64,000 nucleotides of DNA. Source: Elusimicrobiota bacterium. Lineage in GTDB: Bacteria > Elusimicrobiota > Elusimicrobia > UBA1565 > UBA9628. Of the stretch, positions 9,345 to 24,297 are shown piece after piece. Each line of letters begins with the position of its first letter. The stretch's first letter is position 1. The stretch is from positions 3,562,437 to 3,626,436 of the forward strand of contig CP096137.1 in assembly GCA_023213235.1 (NCBI GenBank). The letters are read 5' to 3'. The notes under the pieces are model-generated. The model ran no database searches. It had not been told where the DNA came from and saw only the letters and a program-made list of their open reading frames with translations. Made by a program: the position numbers and the translations under genes.

Positions 9345-10517
9345 TCAGCGCGAGGCGCGCGCGCGCCGGCGCGTCGCCTTCGCGTAGTACTGCGGGCCCG
9401 CGTAATGCTTGAAGGTGACCTTCGCCACTTTCGTGATGAAGTCCTTGGCCTGCGAGTACGACCGGTTCTGTCCCGTGAGCACCGTGATCGCGTAATCGCC
9501 GTTGGGCGTGAGGAAGATGGCGGAGTCGTGGCACGCCTGACGGAGCAGTCCCGTCTTGTGCGCGATCTCCCAGCCGGCCGGCATGCCCTTGGCCAGGCGC
9601 GAGGCGACCGCCTTCGGCTTCTTCAAGATCTCGAGCATGACCTCGGAGCTGACCTTGTCGACGGCCTGGCCGTTGTAGATCTTGTCCATGAGCGCCGACA
9701 TCTCGCGCGCCGTCGTGTAGTTCTCGTGCATGACGCGCCCGCCCTTGATGCTCATGCCCTCTTCGTAGATGCCGGTATAAAGGAGGCCCATGCGCGGGAA
9801 CTGCTGCTGGACGTAGCCGATGCCGAGGCGGTCGAGCAACATCTTCGTGGCCGTGTTGTCGGACTCGTTGATCATGTGGATCAAGAGCTCGCGCACCGAG
9901 AGCTTGGTCCCGTCCGGCCGCCATTTCAAGGAGCCGGAGCCGCCCACGCGGTTGCGCCGCGTGATCGCCATGCGCTCGTCGAGCGCCAGCTGGCCGTCGC
10001 GGATTTTGTAGAAGGCCGCGATCATGACCGGGACCTTGATGAGCGAGGCCGCCGGGAAAAGGTCGTCGGGGTGGTGCATCCAGGTGCGGCCCGACTTCAG
10101 GTCTTTGAGGTAGATGGAGACGCGCCCCGGATAACGCGCCGACATCTTGGCGAGCTCGGACGTCATGTTCTCCCACTCGGTCTCGCGCGGGTCGGCGCGC
10201 ATGGCCGCCGGGGCGGGAGCCGGAGGCGGGCCGATCGTGACGGGCGGAGGAGGGGCCGCGACGACGGCGGCGGTCGGAGGAAGCGGAGCGGGAACGGGAG
10301 CCGGCGCGGGGCCGATCGAGGCCAGGGACGCGGGGGCCGCGATCTCGGCGACCTCGTTGTCTTCCTCGGGACGCCCGTTTTCCTCGGACCAGTCGAGACG
10401 ATAGCCGAGCCCGTAGGACAGGCCGATGACGGCGATCGCCGCGACGAGCAGGAGGTCGGCGCCCTGCGCGCGCAGGAGGTCCCAACGGATGCGTCTGTCG
10501 ACGAGGATTCGGCTCAT
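9345..10517 (-). CDS. Membrane-anchored class A beta-lactamase-like serine hydrolase (390 aa)
   Basis: One transmembrane segment (about residues 20-40) and a Pro/Ala-rich linker (about 62-106) lead into a penicillin-binding-protein/beta-lactamase fold. All three active-site boxes are present: S158-x-x-K161 (ASLIK), SDN at 219-221 and KTG at 321-323. The class A omega-loop ExxLN motif is not evident. The fold, anchor and linker suggest a periplasmic serine hydrolase acting on peptidoglycan-like peptides rather than a secreted resistance enzyme. It sits downstream of clpC, separated by a strong hairpin. Confidence 0.8.
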   Translation of the reverse strand: MSRILVDRRIRWDLLRAQGADLLLVAAIAVIGLSYGLGYRLDWSEENGRPEEDNEVAEIAAPASLASIGPAPAPVPAPLPPTAAVVAAPPPPVTIGPPPAPAPAAMRADPRETEWENMTSELAKMSARYPGRVSIYLKDLKSGRTWMHHPDDLFPAASLIKVPVMIAAFYKIRDGQLALDERMAITRRNRVGGSGSLKWRPDGTKLSVRELLIHMINESDNTATKMLLDRLGIGYVQQQFPRMGLLYTGIYEEGMSIKGGRVMHENYTTAREMSALMDKIYNGQAVDKVSSEVMLEILKKPKAVASRLAKGMPAGWEIAHKTGLLRQACHDSAIFLTPNGDYAITVLTGQNRSYSQAKDFITKVAKVTFKHYAGPQYYAKATRRRARASR

Positions 10518-14069: not shown

Positions 14070-15324
14070 ATGCGGCGCATACCGCCTGCGGGGATCAACC
14101 TTTTCCAGCTGATCTACGTCCTCATCCGGGAGTACAAGGAGAAGACGGGGCTCGAGCCGTTGAACCTCTCGTTGGGCAATCCCGACGGCGTCCCCCCGAG
14201 GCGATCCGCGCGCTCAAGGCGAAGTACGCGAAGGACCCCGGCTACGACTACCACACCTACGCCGAGGACAAGAACCTGCTGGCCTTCGCGGAGGGCATGG
14301 TCTCCCTGCACGGCGGCGTCGACGCCTCGAAGTTCCCCCACCTGCGCGTTCTGCCGACGGCCGGGATCAAGACGGCGACGGCGCTGATGCCGCTCGCCTG
14401 CGGGATGCACCTGCCCGACAAGACGGCGCGCGCGGGCTTCCGCGTCGCCTCGAACCTGCCCGCTTACGACGTGATCGGCACGTGGACCGACTCCTATCTC
14501 GCGACGAACCGCACCGCGTGGCCGCTCGTCTCGTCGGACAACATGCGCTTGAACTTGAAGCGCCTGAAGGACGCGCTCCGGAAAGACGGCGCCGACCGCG
14601 CCGACCTGATCTTCGTGATCCGTCCGGGGAACCCGGCGGCCGTCGGCGCCTCCGAGGCCGACTGGAAGGAGCTCATCGCGTTCTGCCTCGAGAAGAAGAC
14701 GCGCCTCGTCAACGACGGCGCCTACTCGGGCCTGACCGCGGCCGGCACCCACGTGCCGCTGGCGCAAGTCGCCAAGGACTACCCCGAGCTCGAGTGGCTC
14801 GAGCTGTACTCGGTGTCGAAGTCCTACAACGACCCGGGCGCGCGCCTCGGCGCGCTGATCGGCTCGAAGGACTTCGTCGAGGACTTCACCCTCGTGAAGG
14901 GCAACACCGACTCCGGACCCGTGCCCGGCGTGATGGCCGCCTACGGCGAGTTCCTCTCCGACCGAAAGGCCGCGAAGGCCGCGCTCGACGAGATCCGCTC
15001 CCTCTACGAGAAGCGCCTCGCTTATCTGATTCCCACGCTGAAGAAGGCGGGCCTGCGGCCCGCGTGCGCGACCGAGGCCGGCTTTTTACTCTGTGGAAGA
15101 CGCCCAAGGAGGCGTTCGGCAAGCCTCTGCCCGAGACCGGACGCCACGAGGCGTTCAACCGCGCGGTGATCGCCGAGACCGGCATCGTCGGCGTGCACTT
15201 CATGGCGCCCGGCGAGAGCGGGCCGGAGCCGCTGATCCGCTACGCGGTGTGCGCCGACGTGCTCGACGCGAAGTTCCAGAAGAGGCTCGAAGAGGGCCTC
15301 GCGCGCCTCAAGCCCGTTTACTGA
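14070..15324 (+). CDS. PLP-dependent class I/II aminotransferase (two frameshifts)
   Basis: Fold-type I pyridoxal-phosphate aminotransferase of about 418 aa after repairing single-base losses at the C run 14192-14197 and the T run 15083-15087. Visible family features: PLNLSLGNPDGVPP at the N-terminus, VIRPGNPAA in the usual NPTG region, NDGAYSGL (Asp that contacts the PLP ring nitrogen), and YSVSKSYNDPGARLGALIG, in which the Lys after SVS binds PLP. Such enzymes transfer amino groups between an amino acid and a 2-oxo acid. The substrate is unknown; LL-diaminopimelate or aspartate/aromatic types are both possible. It is convergent with the next gene, with a 7-base overlap. Confidence 0.85.
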
Positions 15325-17718: not shown

Positions 17719-17753
17719 TTTCAGCGTTTGATTCTCGACGGAGAACGCGCTAC

Positions 17754-17759
17754 TATAAT
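17754..17759 (+). promoter_or_regulatory. -10 box TATAAT, leaderless start of the ATP-grasp operon
   Basis: A perfect TATAAT ends five bases before the ATG at 17765. No Shine-Dalgarno sequence. It probably drives the five-gene run to 24297. Confidence 0.55.
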
Positions 17760-17764
17760 CAATC

Positions 17765-20212
17765 ATGAACCACGCCGAATCCGCCGTCGCAGCCGATCCC
17801 TCCGCCGACCTCAGGAACAAGACCTTCCTCGTCATCTCCTCGCCGAACCCGAAGAAGAAGTTCATCTACCAGCGCCTCAAGGAGCTGGGCTCGAAGATGA
17901 TCCTGATGTCCTCCGAGGCGAATTGGGTCAGCAAGATGACCGACGGTTTCGTCGAGTGCGACCCGCTCGACGAGGTCGCCTGCGTCGCCAAAGTGGAGGA
18001 ACTCGTCAAGACGCAGAAGATCGACGGCGTCATCACCTTCTGGGAGAACGCGGTGCCGCTGTGCGCGACGCTCGCGCAGCGCTTCGGCTGGATCGGCCAC
18101 ACGCCGCAGGCCGCGCTCAACGCGCGCAACAAGTACCTCACGCGCCAGACGCTCGAGAACTCCAAGCTCGGGAAGTACCAGCCCGCGTGGGCGCTCATCA
18201 AGGGCCAAGTCGACCTCGAGAAGTCCGCCGCGCGCATCGGCTTTCCTTTGGTCTTGAAGCCCGCCTGGGGAGTCAAATCGCAATTCGTCGTCAAGGTCGA
18301 CAGCCTCGACGAGGCGAAGAAAGCGCTCGACTACATCAAGACGAACATGACGCCCGCCTTCGACCCGATCTATAAATACGGCACCGACATCCTCGCCGAG
18401 GAGTACATGGACGGCGCCGAGATCGACGTCGATCTCCTCGTCCAGAACGGCGAGGTCAAGTTCCACGCGTTCAACGACAACTTCCCGACGAAGGAGCCGT
18501 TCTTCATCGAGACCGGCGACGCGATGCCCTCGCGCCACGAGGACAAGGACCTCTCCGACGTCCTGCGCATGGCCAAGGAGGTCGTGAAGTCCCTCGGCCT
18601 GACCAACGGCGCGCTCCACCTCGAGGCCAAGATCACGCCCGCCGGCCCCAAGCTCGTCGAGCTCAACGCGCGCATGGGCGGCGACTACCTCTACGACTGG
18701 ATCAAGACCGTCTGGGAGGTCGACATCATCGAGGAGGCCTCGCGCATCGCCGTCGGCCAGGCCGTGCACCCGAAGCGGCTGAAGGAACCCCGCTGCCACC
18801 TCGTCGGGAAGTACCTGATCCCCGAGTACTCCGGCGTCGTCACCGGCGTCAAATTCCCGCAGGAGAAGCTCGACCCCGCCAAGGTCCATGAGATCGCCGT
18901 GCAGAAGGAGCCCGGCGACGCCGTGCTCGTCCCGCCGGAAGGCTTCGAGACGATGGGCTGGGCCGTCGGCCGCGGCGACACGTACTCCGAGGCCGAGGAA
19001 AACCTCGACGAGGCGCTGCGCCAGGTGCACGTCAACATCGCCCGCTTCGACTCCACGTCCTCGCTCGGCAAGACGCGGCGCAAGAACCGATTCGGCGCCG
19101 CCCAGGTCTCGCGTCGCCGCATCCTGCAGTCGGCGCGCATCGAGAAGGTCCGCGGCTCGGACTTCGACAAGAAGAGCCTGCACGTCGGCATCCTGTGCAA
19201 CATCTTCGACGCCGAGGGCGGCGAGGAGAGCGCGGTCCACGCCGACCTGACCTCCGTCGGCCGCAACATCAAGAAGGCCGTCGAGTCCAAGGGACACAAG
19301 GTCACGTTCTTCGACATGAACGAGACGCCCCTGCCCTTCGAGAAGATCGCCAACGCGAACGTCGACATGATCTTCAACGTCTGCGAGCGCATCAACAATT
19401 CCTCCCTGCTCGAGCCCCACGCCGCCGCGATCCTGGACTGCCTCGGGATTCCCTACACGGGCTCCAATCCGTTGACGCTCGCGTTGTGCATCGACAAGAT
19501 CAAGGTCAAAAAGATCCTCGAGCAGCACGGGCTGCCCACGCCGAAGTTCGACTACGTCTTCGAGAAGAACGAGCCGATCCGCGAGGACCTTCACTACCCG
19601 CTGATGGTCAAGATCGCGAACATGGACAACTCGATCGGCATCAGCAACTCGTCGGTCGTGACCAGCCTCAAGGCGCTCAAGGAGCAGGTGACCATGCTCC
19701 TCGAAAAATACAACCGCCCCGTGCTCATCGAGGAGTTCATCGAGGGCGACGAGGTGGACGTGTCGATCATGGGCAACGAGGAGCGCGTGAAGGTCCTGCC
19801 GCTCTCCCGCTCGATGTTCGACGACCTTCCCAAGGGCACGTGGGGCATCTATCCCTTCCAGGCGAAGTGGGAAGACAACTCGGTCTATTCGAAGATCAAG
19901 GTCGAGCGGCCGGCGAAGTACTCTCAAAAGCTCTCGGCCCTGATTTCCGAGATCTGCCTGGACGCTTACCGGATTTTCGATTGTCATGACTACGCGCGCA
20001 TCGAGGTCCGCATCGACCGCGCGGGCAACCCCTACATCCTCGAGATCAACCCGAACCCGTCGATCAACGACGGGGACTGCGTGCCGGCCTGCGCCGAGGT
20101 GATCGGCCAGACCTACGCCGACTTCATCGAGGAGATCATGAAGGAGTGCATCTCGCGCTACCGCGCGCGCCCTCCCTATTATCACCTGCAGTCGGCGATG
20201 ACCCCCTTCTAA
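17765..20212 (+). CDS. Tandem ATP-grasp ligase: L-amino-acid-ligase-like half fused to D-Ala-D-Ala-ligase-like half (815 aa)
   Basis: Two complete ATP-grasp units in one chain. The N-terminal half (about 20-430) resembles carnosine-synthase/BacD-type ligases: GVITFWENAVPLCATLA, ARNKYLTR, and the metal- and ATP-binding LVELNARMGGDY. A basic linker with many Arg and Lys residues follows. The C-terminal half (about 475-800) resembles D-alanine-D-alanine ligase: NVCERINNSSLLEPHAAAIL, LGIPYTGSNPLTLALCIDK, and LEINPNPSIN in the metal-binding loop. ATP-grasp ligases join a carboxylate to an amine through an acyl-phosphate, so the fusion could form two amide bonds in sequence. I know no characterised enzyme with this pairing. 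It directly abuts galE (no spacer). Confidence 0.85.
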   Translation: MNHAESAVAADPSADLRNKTFLVISSPNPKKKFIYQRLKELGSKMILMSSEANWVSKMTDGFVECDPLDEVACVAKVEELVKTQKIDGVITFWENAVPLCATLAQRFGWIGHTPQAALNARNKYLTRQTLENSKLGKYQPAWALIKGQVDLEKSAARIGFPLVLKPAWGVKSQFVVKVDSLDEAKKALDYIKTNMTPAFDPIYKYGTDILAEEYMDGAEIDVDLLVQNGEVKFHAFNDNFPTKEPFFIETGDAMPSRHEDKDLSDVLRMAKEVVKSLGLTNGALHLEAKITPAGPKLVELNARMGGDYLYDWIKTVWEVDIIEEASRIAVGQAVHPKRLKEPRCHLVGKYLIPEYSGVVTGVKFPQEKLDPAKVHEIAVQKEPGDAVLVPPEGFETMGWAVGRGDTYSEAEENLDEALRQVHVNIARFDSTSSLGKTRRKNRFGAAQVSRRRILQSARIEKVRGSDFDKKSLHVGILCNIFDAEGGEESAVHADLTSVGRNIKKAVESKGHKVTFFDMNETPLPFEKIANANVDMIFNVCERINNSSLLEPHAAAILDCLGIPYTGSNPLTLALCIDKIKVKKILEQHGLPTPKFDYVFEKNEPIREDLHYPLMVKIANMDNSIGISNSSVVTSLKALKEQVTMLLEKYNRPVLIEEFIEGDEVDVSIMGNEERVKVLPLSRSMFDDLPKGTWGIYPFQAKWEDNSVYSKIKVERPAKYSQKLSALISEICLDAYRIFDCHDYARIEVRIDRAGNPYILEINPNPSINDGDCVPACAEVIGQTYADFIEEIMKECISRYRARPPYYHLQSAMTPF

Positions 20213-21223
20213 GTGAAGGTACTCGTCACCGGCGCCTCCGGCTACATCGGCAGCCACACCTGTCTCGAGCTGCTCAAGGCGGGGCACGACGTCGTCGGCT
20301 TCGACAACTTTTCGAACTCCTCGCCGAAGTCGATCGAGCGCGTGCGCGAGCTCGCGGGCAAGGACATGCGCCTCGAGACGCTCGACCTGCGCGAGACCGA
20401 GAAGCTGACCGCGCTCCTGAAGGAAGGCTTCGACGCCGTCGTGCACTTCGCCGCGCTCAAGGCCGTCGGCGAGTCCGTCGAGAAGCCGAAGCTGTACATG
20501 GAGAACAACGTCGGCGGCACGGCGAGCCTGCTCGGCGCGATGGAGATCGCCGGCTGCTCCCGCCTCGTCTTCTCCTCCTCCTGCACGGTCTACGGCGCCG
20601 TCGAGAAGAGCCCCGTCGGCGAGCGCCACCCGCGCGCGGCGGTCAACCCTTACGGCCAGACGAAGCTCGACATCGAGGACATGTGCTACGAGCTCGCCTC
20701 GGAGGACAAGAGCTGGAAGATCGCGCTGCTGCGCTACTTCAACCCCGTCGGCGCGCACGAGAGCGGCCGCATCGGCGAGGACCCGAAGGGCATCCCCAAC
20801 AATCTGATGCCGTACGTCATGCAGACGGCCGTCGGACGGCGCGAGTTCGTCAACGTCTGGGGCGACGACTACCCCACGCCCGACGGCACGGGCGTGCGCG
20901 ACTACATCCACGTCGTCGACCTGGCGCTCGGGCACGTCGCCGCGCTGTCCAAGCTCGAGGAGTTCCAGGGCGCGCAGGCCGTCAACCTCGGCGCCGGCCG
21001 CGGCTACTCGGTGCTCGAGGTGATCGCCGCCGCCGCCAAGGCCGCCGGCAAGCCGATCCCGCACAAGATCATGCCGCGCCGCGCCGGGGACGCGGCCGCG
21101 ATCTGGGCGGACGCCTCGCTCGCGAAGAAGAAGCTCGGCTGGGAGACCAAGCGCGGGCTCGACGAGATGTGCGCCGACCATTGGCGCTGGCAGAAGGACA
21201 ACCCGGAAGGCTACGGCGAGTGA
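20213..21223 (+). CDS. galE: UDP-glucose 4-epimerase
   Basis: NAD-dependent extended short-chain dehydrogenase/reductase of 336 aa that interconverts UDP-glucose and UDP-galactose. The NAD-binding TGASGYIGSH is at the N-terminus, VHFAALKAVGESVEKP follows, and the catalytic Tyr-x-x-x-Lys is in YGQTKLDIEDM. RYFNPVGAHESGRIGEDP and the PDGTGVRDYIHVVDLA segment are diagnostic of GalE. It starts with GTG directly after the TAA of the ATP-grasp gene, without any gap, and its TGA overlaps the next GTG. In this operon it may supply a sugar nucleotide for cell-surface polymers. Confidence 0.92.
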   Translation: MKVLVTGASGYIGSHTCLELLKAGHDVVGFDNFSNSSPKSIERVRELAGKDMRLETLDLRETEKLTALLKEGFDAVVHFAALKAVGESVEKPKLYMENNVGGTASLLGAMEIAGCSRLVFSSSCTVYGAVEKSPVGERHPRAAVNPYGQTKLDIEDMCYELASEDKSWKIALLRYFNPVGAHESGRIGEDPKGIPNNLMPYVMQTAVGRREFVNVWGDDYPTPDGTGVRDYIHVVDLALGHVAALSKLEEFQGAQAVNLGAGRGYSVLEVIAAAAKAAGKPIPHKIMPRRAGDAAAIWADASLAKKKLGWETKRGLDEMCADHWRWQKDNPEGYGE

Positions 21224-21567: not shown

Positions 21568-21899
21568 AGAAAGTCCTTTTCATCTGCGGGCGGAACAAGA
21601 AACGAAGCCCGACCGCGGAGGAGCTTTTCTCCGGGAGCGCCGGCGCCGAGGTCGCGTCGGCCGGAACCTCCCCCGACGCGGAGAATCCCGTCACTCCGGA
21701 GTTGCTCGCCTGGGCCGATGTGATCTTCGTCATGGAGAAAGCCCAGAAGTCCAAACTCGCCGCGCGTTTCAGCTCCGCTCTCAAAGATAAGAAGATCGTC
21801 TGCCTGAATATCCCGGACAAATACGCCTTCAACGATCCCGCACTGATCAGCATCCTCCTGGCCAAGGCGGGGCCCTACTTCGCTAAACTGTCGCCGTGA
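21564..21899 (+). CDS. Small low-molecular-weight tyrosine-phosphatase-like protein (111 aa)
   Basis: Short relative of low-molecular-weight protein tyrosine phosphatases. The P-loop C-x5-R-S is present (CGRNKKRS near residue 9), and the general acid is probably the Asp in NIPDKY near residue 93. It is shorter than classical enzymes (about 150 aa) but matches a group of compact homologues that include phrases such as SAGTSPDAENPVT. The substrate is unknown. A TTG start overlaps the upstream stop and its own TGA overlaps the GTG of hrpB. Confidence 0.75.
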   Translation: MKKVLFICGRNKKRSPTAEELFSGSAGAEVASAGTSPDAENPVTPELLAWADVIFVMEKAQKSKLAARFSSALKDKKIVCLNIPDKYAFNDPALISILLAKAGPYFAKLSP

Positions 21900-24297
21900 G
21901 CGCGAATATTCTTCCCATCACGGCTCATCGCGAGAGGATCCTCTCCGAACTCAACCGCGCCGGCGCGCTGATCCTCTCCGCCCCGACCGGCTCCGGCAAG
22001 TCGACGCAGACGGCGCAGTTCCTCCTCGGAAAGACCAAGGGCAGGATTCTCGTCCTCGAGCCGCGCCGTCTCTCGGCGCGTTCGCTGGCGGCGCGCGTGG
22101 CCGCGGAGACCAAGACGCGGCTGGGCGAGCGCGTCGGCTACCAGGTACGCTTCGACTCGCGGTCCGGTCCCAAGACGGAGATCGTCTTCCAAACCTACGG
22201 AATCTTCGTCGCGCAGATGATGAAGGACCCGGAGCTTCCCGGCGTGGGGGCGGTTCTCCTCGACGAGTTCCACGAGCGCTCGCTCGAGTGCGACCTGGCG
22301 CTGGCCTGGCTCAAGCGGCTGCGCGTCAAGCGCCCGGAGCTCAAGCTCGTCGTGATGTCGGCGACGCTCGGACAGGAGGCTCTCGCGAAGTATCTTCCCG
22401 GCGCCGCGAAAGTCGAGGTGCCGGGACGGATGTTCCCCGTCGACGTGCGCTACCGTGTCCCCGACGCGCGCTCCGGTCCCGCCGAGAACGCGCTCGGCGC
22501 GCTCAAGGACCTGATCAAGCAGGGCCTCGACGGCTCCGTGCTCGTGTTCATGCCCGGACTCAGGGAGATCCGCCGTTCATTGACGGTGCTCGGCCCCGTG
22601 TGCCGTGAGCACGGCATCGAGCTCCTCGGCCTGCACGGCTCCATGGAGCCCGAGGAGCAGGACCGCGCGCTCGCTCCGACGGGCAAGCCTCGCGTCATCG
22701 TCGCCACCAACGTCGCCGAGACCGGCCTCACGATTCCCGACGTGACCGCGGTGATCGACTCCGGACTGCACCGCGTGGCCGCGCACGACGCCGCGCGCGG
22801 GATCAACACGCTCTACGTCGCGCGCATCTCCCGCGCCAACGCCGCTCAGCGCGCCGGCCGCGCCGGCCGCACGGCGCCCGGACGCTGCGTGCGCCTCTGG
22901 ACGCTGAACGAAGAAGCCGCGATGGCCGAAAGCCTCAAGCCCGAGATCGCGCGGCTCGAGCTGAGCTCCCTGCGCCTGCAGGCCGCGTCCTTGCCGGAGA
23001 GCGTCGACTGGCTGACCCCCCACAGGAGCCTGCCTGGGCGGCGGCCGGCAAGACGCTCGAGGCGCTCGGCGCCGCGGCGCAGGGGCGCGCGACCTCCCTG
23101 GGCCGGGCCCTGCTGCGCTACCCCGCGCCGCCGAAGGTCGCCGCCGCGCTCGAGGCCGCGCGCGAAATCGGCCCCGAAGCTTACGAGCGCGCCTGCGCGA
23201 TGGCCGCCGTCTTCGAGACCGCCGGCGACCGCCGTCCCGACAAGGCCTCCGACCTGGCCGAGCTCGCCGCCGACCTGCTCGCGGGCGCGCGCGGCGACCT
23301 CGACTGGGAGACCGTCGAGACGTTCAAGCAGCTCAAGCGCATCGGCGGCGAGGACGCCGCCGCGAAGCCCGGCAGCCTCGACCGCGTCTGGCTCGACGCG
23401 TTCTTCGACCGGCTCGCCGCGCGCGAAGGCGACGGCACCTTCTACCGCCTGGCCGACGGGCGCGGGGCGACCCTGCCCGTCGAGACGAAGAAGGCGCCGC
23501 CGCTCATCCTGGCGCTCGACGTGCGCGAGCGCGCCGGCGGCGGCCAGGCGCGCCAGGCCGGCGTGACCCTGTACCTGGCGTACACGCCGGAGTTCATCCA
23601 GAAGGAATTCCCCGGCGAGACGCGCTGGGAGAAGTCCTCGGAGTTCGACTCGCGCAAGGAACGCGTCTCCCACGAGGAGCGGCTGATGTTCCGCGGCCTG
23701 GCGATCGACCGCAAGGAGGCCGTCGTCCTCAAGTCCGACAAGAAGGCCTCGGCCGAGCTGTGGGCGGAGAAATTCGCCTCCGGCGAACTGCTTCACCCGG
23801 GACTCGACGACAAGGCCAAGCAGTACCTCGTGCGGATCGCGCTGGCCCGGCGCCTGTATCCCGACATGGGCTTCCCGGAGATGTCGATCGACGACTGGCG
23901 GCTCGTCTACGGCGAGGCGTGCGCCGGCAAGAACTCTCTCAAGGACATCGAGCGCGTCGAGCTGATCCCGCACCTGGCCGCCTATCTCGGCCCGGCGCTC
24001 TCCGCGTTCCTCGACCGCGCGCTTCCCGCCGCGAAGAAGCTGCCGTCCGGGAAATCCGGACGCTTCACCTACCACGAGACCAACCCCGCCGAGATCAACG
24101 CCCGGCTCGGAGACTTCGTCGGCATGAAGGGCACGCTCGCGCTGTGCGAGGGACGGCTGCCCGTGATCTTCGACATCCTCGCGCCGAACTACCGGACCGT
24201 GCAGAAGACCAAGGACCTGTCGTCGTTCTGGGCGAACACCTACCCGACGGTGAAGAAGGAGTTGCAGCGCCGGTATCCCCGCCATCCCTGGCCGTAA
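21896..24297 (+). CDS. hrpB: ATP-dependent helicase HrpB (one frameshift)
   Basis: DExH-box helicase of about 800 aa after repair of one lost C in the run at 23016-23021. Motif I is APTGSGKST, motif II is DEFHER, motif III VMSATLG, and motif VI is in ANAAQRAGRAGRTAPGR. The C-terminal half contains the HrpB-specific region (WAEKFASGELLHPGLDD, HETNPAEINARLGDFVGM, then WANTYPTVKKELQRRYPRHPWP). HrpB is widespread but its RNA substrate is not well defined. The start GTG at 21896 overlaps the preceding TGA. It is the last gene of the operon starting at 17765. Confidence 0.9.

What the first reader, a model, noticed from the sequence alone, without database searches (positions are those of the whole stretch)
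17765..20212. Fusion of two different ATP-grasp ligases in one 815-aa protein
An L-amino-acid-ligase-like unit (carnosine synthase/BacD type) is fused to a D-Ala-D-Ala-ligase-like unit through an Arg/Lys-rich linker. Both halves keep their ATP/metal-binding signatures (ELNARMGG and LEINPNPSIN). Two sequential amide bonds would let one enzyme build a short peptide or an unusual peptidoglycan or surface-polymer linkage. It heads an operon with galE, a DUF3147 membrane protein, a small phosphatase-like protein and HrpB. I know no characterised enzyme with this architecture.
Basis: partly seen in the sequence, partly recalled or inferred. Interest (0 to 1): 0.8.

Follow-up and report, generated by a model that had tools for sequence, protein, structure and literature searches.

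The report
Two peptide-bond ligases fused together
This gene from an uncultured Elusimicrobia bacterium joins two different ATP-driven peptide-bond-forming enzymes in one protein; the same fusion occurs in some small-genome bacteria (CPR) and archaea, where it sits in gene clusters that look like they make an unknown small peptide, so it probably builds a short non-ribosomal peptide.

Summary
Window 17765-20212 (+) encodes one intact 815-aa protein. Residues ~14-427 are an L-amino-acid-ligase-type ATP-grasp unit (Pfam ATP-grasp_4, LAL_C2; model Z 38 to ligase 3vot). Residues 469-806 are a D-Ala-D-Ala-ligase-type ATP-grasp unit (Z ~32 to Ddl). Both keep their catalytic residues and are under purifying selection. 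The join is not an assembly accident: the full-length fusion is in about 30 genomes of the same Elusimicrobiota class, 3 of 279 sampled genomes of the Woesearchaeota record's phylum and 13 of 286 sampled genomes of the CPR class holding Komeilibacteria. Its C halves form one clade. The C half is not a D-Ala-D-Ala ligase: its substrate-pocket residues are replaced, and the genome has a separate ordinary Ddl. The galE 'operon' is genus-specific. In CPR genomes the fusion lies beside a MurL/QueC-like carboxylate-activating enzyme (9 of 14 genomes), a LysA-like decarboxylase and further ATP-grasp ligases: a peptide-pathway context. Best reading: a bifunctional NRPS-independent ligase making two successive amide bonds in a small peptide-like metabolite. 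Product unknown. New variant of a known kind.

The parts
17765..20212 (+). bifunctional ATP-grasp ligase gene, 815 aa
17804..19045 (+). N half, aa ~14-427: L-amino-acid-ligase-type unit (ATPgrasp_N, ATP-grasp_4, LAL_C2)
   Evidence: Pfam; 3vot E 4e-24; VIA Z 38.2 over 401 residues; invariant K123, K165, E212, E219, E287, E299, R303, G305
19046..19168 (+). aa 428-468, conserved junction (SSxGKTxRKNRF...ARIEKIR), partly low-confidence in the model
   Evidence: invariant S432, G435, T437, R439 across Elusimicrobia, Woesearchaeota and CPR; pLDDT <50 at 431-438; dN/dS <=0.15 where dS is measurable
19169..20209 (+). C half, aa 469-815: Ddl-type ATP-grasp unit with altered substrate pocket
   Evidence: Dala_Dala_lig_C 2.8e-36; Z ~29-32 to Ddl structures; residue mapping to E. 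coli DdlB
17727..17764 (+). conserved upstream block with a -10-like TATAAT (17754-17759) 5 nt before the ATG; probable leaderless transcript
   Evidence: similar block in other species of the genus; -10-like motifs close to the start in other genera
20213..21223 (+). galE-like epimerase directly downstream; conserved neighbour only within the genus, probably not a functional partner

Best explanation
The protein is a bifunctional, NRPS-independent amide ligase that makes two successive amide bonds in one small peptide-like metabolite. Inferred order: the N half phosphorylates the carboxylate of a first amino or carboxylic acid and joins it to an amino acid, as L-amino-acid ligases do. The C half then forms a second amide bond by Ddl chemistry (acyl phosphate, then amine attack) on a substrate that is not D-Ala. 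It does so either by activating the carboxylate of the new dipeptide or by joining the dipeptide to another unit. In CPR relatives the product is probably processed further by a neighbouring MurL/QueC-like enzyme that activates a carboxylate with ATP, and by a LysA-like PLP decarboxylase. Elusimicrobia lack the MurL-like partner, so there the ligase product is probably final or processed differently. Shown here: the fusion, conservation of both catalytic sites, the changed D-Ala pocket, the phyletic spread and the CPR gene context. Inferred: activity of both sites, their order, handover between the halves, and the product.
For: Both halves are complete and match active ligases in sequence and in model. 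Catalytic residues are invariant or nearly so across three phyla. dN/dS is 0.06-0.20 in both halves within the genus. The fusion is kept in about 30 genomes of the class, in Woesearchaeota and in CPR, and the C halves form one clade with support 100. Among 286 CPR-class genomes, 11 carry a close MurL-like gene and 9 of these are among the 14 with the fusion, on the same contig, with gaps of 20-49 bp in 7 cases (Fisher p 3e-12, inflated by shared ancestry). Those loci also hold further ATP-grasp ligases, LysA-like decarboxylases and a dipeptide-epimerase-like enzyme. On rhizobial plasmids a LAL-type gene and a Ddl-like gene lie side by side as separate genes, with ectB and an exporter in some, as expected if the two activities serve one product. 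A characterised precedent with two separate ATP-grasp ligases acting in turn is PnaC then PnaB in phosphonoalamides (PMC11867202).
Against: No substrate, product or assay is known. The relative placement of the two halves in the model is uncertain (pTM 0.58), so no channel can be claimed. In Elusimicrobia there is no conserved partner gene beyond the genus and no MurL-like gene (the same model finds its targets in CPR), so the pathway context is borrowed from distant relatives at 37-49% identity. Several CPR members (L148-L152) have eroded C-half residues, so the C site is not kept everywhere.
Confidence: 0.55

Rival explanations
1. The two halves are both active but work independently, making two unrelated amides, and were fused only for co-expression.
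For: No channel is visible (pTM 0.58). Stand-alone relatives of each half exist (C half in archaea; N half in CPR genomes G669 and G872).
Against: The junction holds residues invariant across phyla. The fused form was kept across three phyla. The paired but separate genes in rhizobial clusters point to one product.
Confidence: 0.15
2. Cell-envelope enzyme: builds or amidates a peptidoglycan or surface-polymer peptide.
For: Ddl-type C half. MurL-like and, in some CPR loci, MurG-like genes lie nearby. FemAB/LPG-synthase-like transferases flank the archaeal stand-alone C halves.
Against: Occurs in Woesearchaeota, which are archaea. The genome has a separate Ddl with the canonical pocket. No peptidoglycan gene is a constant neighbour in Elusimicrobia. 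The D-Ala pocket is lost.
Confidence: 0.12
3. Only one half is catalytic; the other is a regulatory or substrate-binding remnant.
For: Some CPR members have degraded C-half residues (L148-L152).
Against: In the window protein and all Elusimicrobia and Woesearchaeota members aligned, the checked catalytic residues of both halves are present and dN/dS is low in both.
Confidence: 0.1
4. A protein- or peptide-tagging ligase that adds residues to a macromolecule rather than making a free small peptide; the basic junction would bind the acceptor.
For: ATP-grasp ligases of the RimK and graspetide kinds do this (general knowledge; PMC8939145 for graspetides). The Arg/Lys-rich junction is conserved.
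Against: Closest families by sequence and model are free-amino-acid ligases (LAL, Ddl). No conserved small gene was seen next to it beyond the genus.
Confidence: 0.08

Closest known systems
L-amino-acid ligases (BL00235/3vot, RizA/4wd3, BacD-YwfE/3wnz)
   Same: Whole fold, LAL_C2 domain and catalytic residues of the N half
   Different: Only 19-23% identical; these are single-unit dipeptide ligases, not fused to a second ligase
D-alanine--D-alanine ligase (DdlA/DdlB, VanA/VanG)
   Same: Whole fold and ATP/metal/oxyanion residues of the C half
   Different: S150->N622, Y216->W702, G276->S766, S281->D771, L282->C772, D257->E747; below the NCBIfam Ddl cut-offs listed
PnaC + PnaB of phosphonoalamide biosynthesis (PMC11867202)
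   Same: Two ATP-grasp ligases acting in turn to make a tripeptide without an NRPS
Adjacent LAL-type and Ddl-like ATP-grasp genes on rhizobial plasmids (L182, L183, L184)
   Same: Same two unit types in the same order, apparently for one product
   Different: Separate genes, 20-32% identity per half, no known product; ectB nearby in L182 and L183
Carbamoyl-phosphate synthetase large subunit (CarB)
   Same: Two ATP-grasp units in one chain
   Different: The two units of CarB are duplicates of one type; here they are of two families, and superposition of whole chains fails (rmsd ~21)
Carnosine synthase (CARNS1/ATPGD1), from own knowledge
   Different: No second Ddl-type unit as far as I know; no CARNS1 sequence was compared here

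Membership tests
L-amino-acid ligase (N half) | ATP-grasp_4 plus LAL_C2 above Pfam cut-offs | tested here: met
   83.4 and 39.6 bits against cut-offs of 27 and 29.4
L-amino-acid ligase (N half) | Fold of known LAL structures | tested here: met
   3vot Z 38.2, rmsd 3.1, 401 aligned
L-amino-acid ligase (N half) | ATP-dependent dipeptide synthesis from free L-amino acids | not testable with these tools
   needs an assay
D-alanine--D-alanine ligase (C half) | Ddl fold and ATP/metal/oxyanion residues (K97, K144, E180, E187, K215, R255, E270, N272) | tested here: met
D-alanine--D-alanine ligase (C half) | D-Ala pocket residues S150, Y216 and S281/L282 | tested here: not met
   N622, W702, D771/C772 in the window protein; the same in the 11 Elusimicrobia members aligned except one C->A at L282; the E15 loop alignment is unsure
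D-alanine--D-alanine ligase (C half) | NCBIfam Ddl cut-offs | tested here: not met
   177.8 bits against 243 (NF002378) and 156.2 against 245.65 (TIGR01205)
Carbamoyl-phosphate synthetase large subunit | Two CPS-type ATP-grasp units (CPSase_L_D2) | tested here: not met
   PF02786 not among the matches at E <= 0.001; the halves belong to two other families
Carnosine synthase | Sequence relationship to CARNS1 and carnosine-forming activity | not tested
   no CARNS1 sequence compared
MurL (CPR neighbour gene, not the finding itself) | NCBIfam NF041275 cut-off of 700 bits | tested here: not met
   15 of 16 members match weakly, best 6e-10; the member scored in full has 10.6 bits; the model resembles QueC-type PP-loop enzymes. 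Related in sequence, not shown to be MurL

The most novel reading that the evidence does not exclude
Elusimicrobia, CPR bacteria and Woesearchaeota share a so far undescribed non-ribosomal peptide pathway whose core is this two-ligase fusion. In CPR a MurL/QueC-like enzyme epimerises or otherwise activates the peptide's C terminus and a LysA-like enzyme, a type known to act on a D-centre, decarboxylates it, giving a D-amino-acid- or amine-ended peptide.
Probability: 0.3. Interest if true: 0.8.

Novelty: new variant of a known kind. Interest (0 to 1): 0.6.

Why it matters
Characterised enzymes with two ATP-grasp units in one chain are few; in the papers read only CarB was named as such. A natural fusion of an L-amino-acid ligase with a Ddl-type ligase whose D-Ala pocket has been replaced would be a compact tripeptide synthetase and a useful biocatalyst. 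Its presence in reduced CPR and Woesearchaeota genomes, with carboxylate-activating and decarboxylating neighbours, points to an unknown peptide made by organisms about whose small molecules little is known.

Tried and rejected
galE/HrpB operon as functional context: rejected, since galE linkage is seen in 12 loci, all of the window's genus. MurL-like gene in Elusimicrobia: none in 58 genomes; the same model gave 11 strong hits in CPR, so the blank is informative. Pfam support for DUF3147: none at E 0.01. CarB-like architecture: whole-chain superposition fails (rmsd ~21). PDB sequence relatives of the MurL-like neighbour: none. Literature: searches for ATP-grasp with Elusimicrobia, for fused LAL and Ddl, and for 'two ATP-grasp' found no description of this fusion; the library holds only open-licence papers. 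Tree of N halves: Elusimicrobia paralogs and CPR stand-alone N units branch among the fusions, so one fusion event with later losses or domain reuse is likely but not proved. Other phyla could not be scanned evenly; the exact-seed scan of genome contigs reaches only close relatives.

Full report
OBSERVATION. The ORF at 17765-20212 (+) is open for 815 codons. Pfam places ATPgrasp_N, ATP-grasp_4 and LAL_C2 in residues 39-425 and Dala_Dala_lig_C in 587-792. PDB sequence searches pair the first half with L-amino-acid ligases (3vot, E 4e-24) and the second with Ddl (E ~5e-22). An AlphaFold model built on 28 natural fusions has mean pLDDT 85. Its N half aligns with 3vot at Z 38.2 over 401 residues and its C half with Ddl chains at Z 29-32 over about 300. 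The relative placement of the halves is uncertain (pTM 0.58).

REALITY OF THE FUSION. The same continuous frame occurs in about 30 genomes of the window's class within Elusimicrobiota (60-93% identity, a few cut by contig ends; outside the class only single units matched at E 1e-40). It also occurs in 3 of 279 sampled genomes of the phylum of a Woesearchaeota record (49%). In 286 sampled genomes of the class of a Komeilibacteria record, 13 carry the full fusion (37-47%) and one carries a copy cut by a contig end. All fused C halves form one clade (SH-aLRT 100) whose nearest outsiders are archaeal stand-alone C-type proteins. The N-half tree is compatible, but paralogs and stand-alone units branch within it. 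Within the genus, dN/dS is 0.11-0.20 for the N half and 0.06-0.13 for the C half.

ACTIVE SITES. In the N half K123, K165, E212, E219, E287, E299, R303 and G305 are invariant in 28 fusions; by the HMMER alignment E287, E299 and R303 fall on the acidic and Arg positions shared with 3vot and BacD. In the C half, aligned to E. coli DdlB taken from the MG1655 record, K97, K144, E180, E187, K215, R255, E270 and N272 are kept and D257 is Glu. S150, Y216, G276, S281 and L282 are N622, W702, S766, D771 and C772. DdlB residue roles are from general knowledge of that enzyme: S150 and Y216 help close the first D-Ala site, S281 and L282 bind the second D-Ala. The genome encodes a separate Ddl with the canonical residues (L004). 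So the C half should still make acyl phosphates and amides, but not D-Ala-D-Ala. Members from CPR loci L148-L152 have lost some C-half residues.

JUNCTION. Residues 428-468 (SSxGKTxRKNRF...ARIEKIR) are conserved across phyla, with S432, G435, T437 and R439 invariant, although part of this stretch is modelled with low confidence. Its role is unknown.

CONTEXT IN ELUSIMICROBIA. galE follows with no gap but is a neighbour in one genus only; the wider synteny (ClpC on one side, LepB/LepA-like genes on the other) is that of the chromosome region, and in other families the gene has no constant partner. A -10-like TATAAT lies 5 nt before the ATG, in a block conserved in the genus, with similar motifs close to the start codon in other genera: probably a leaderless transcript.

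CONTEXT IN CPR AND ARCHAEA. Neighbour clusters contain a ~460-aa family whose members match the MurL model weakly (15 of 16, best 6e-10) and whose model resembles QueC-type PP-loop enzymes, with four invariant Cys. [quoted passage not shown]). Of 286 CPR-class genomes 11 have a close member. Nine of these are fusion genomes, on the same contig, seven with a 20-49 bp gap; the other two have it beside stand-alone Ddl-like genes. The loci further contain LysA-like PLP decarboxylases with conserved motifs, other ATP-grasp ligases, an L-Ala-D/L-Glu-epimerase-like enzyme and LPG-synthase/FemAB-like transferases. Archaeal relatives of the C half occur in tandem arrays and fused to a lysine-2,3-aminomutase-like unit. 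On rhizobial plasmids a LAL-type and a Ddl-like gene are adjacent, with ectB and an exporter in some.

INTERPRETATION. The simplest reading is a bifunctional ligase that makes two successive amide bonds in a small peptide-like metabolite, as PnaC and PnaB do as separate proteins (PMC11867202). Steps shown: fusion, conserved catalytic sites, changed pocket, distribution, context. Steps inferred: activity, order, handover, product. The pathway context is strongest in CPR and is only borrowed for the window organism.

NOVELTY. Each half belongs to a known kind; the combination was not found described in the open-licence literature searched. I rate it a new variant of a known kind.

Noticed in passing
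window 17727-17764; L005-L013, L015-L029: Promoter-like block with a -10 element about 5-10 nt before the start codon, suggesting leaderless transcripts in Elusimicrobia.
   Followed up: partly
L003 88-3246 (-), same genome: 1052-aa ORF with an apparent signal peptide, an ATP-grasp-like stretch with LAL_C2, and an MFS transporter domain: a ligase fused to an exporter.
   Followed up: partly
L002/L081 (same genome), L086, L088, L092: N-half paralog (about 36%) at the C end of ~1000-1650-aa proteins with a large N part without Pfam match; in the window genome the frame appears broken.
   Followed up: partly
L164, L165, L167: Archaeal ~700-aa fusions of a lysine-2,3-aminomutase-like unit with a Ddl-type ATP-grasp unit, next to further Ddl-like genes.
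   Followed up: partly
L142-L152, L161-L170: MurL/QueC-like PP-loop family with four invariant Cys, without a clear Pfam family, beside Ddl-type ligases in CPR and archaea.
   Followed up: yes
G048:C5:47275-48612: N-half-like match lies in an open frame of 17,755 codons: a giant-gene candidate in an Elusimicrobia relative.
   Followed up: no
window 14070-15324 and 21896-24297: An aminotransferase and HrpB are each split over two frames; the aminotransferase is 419-420 aa in relatives, so indel errors or decay are likely in this assembly.
   Followed up: partly
window 9345-10517 (-): Beta-lactamase2-family protein (Pfam 6e-57) encoded close to ClpC.
   Followed up: no
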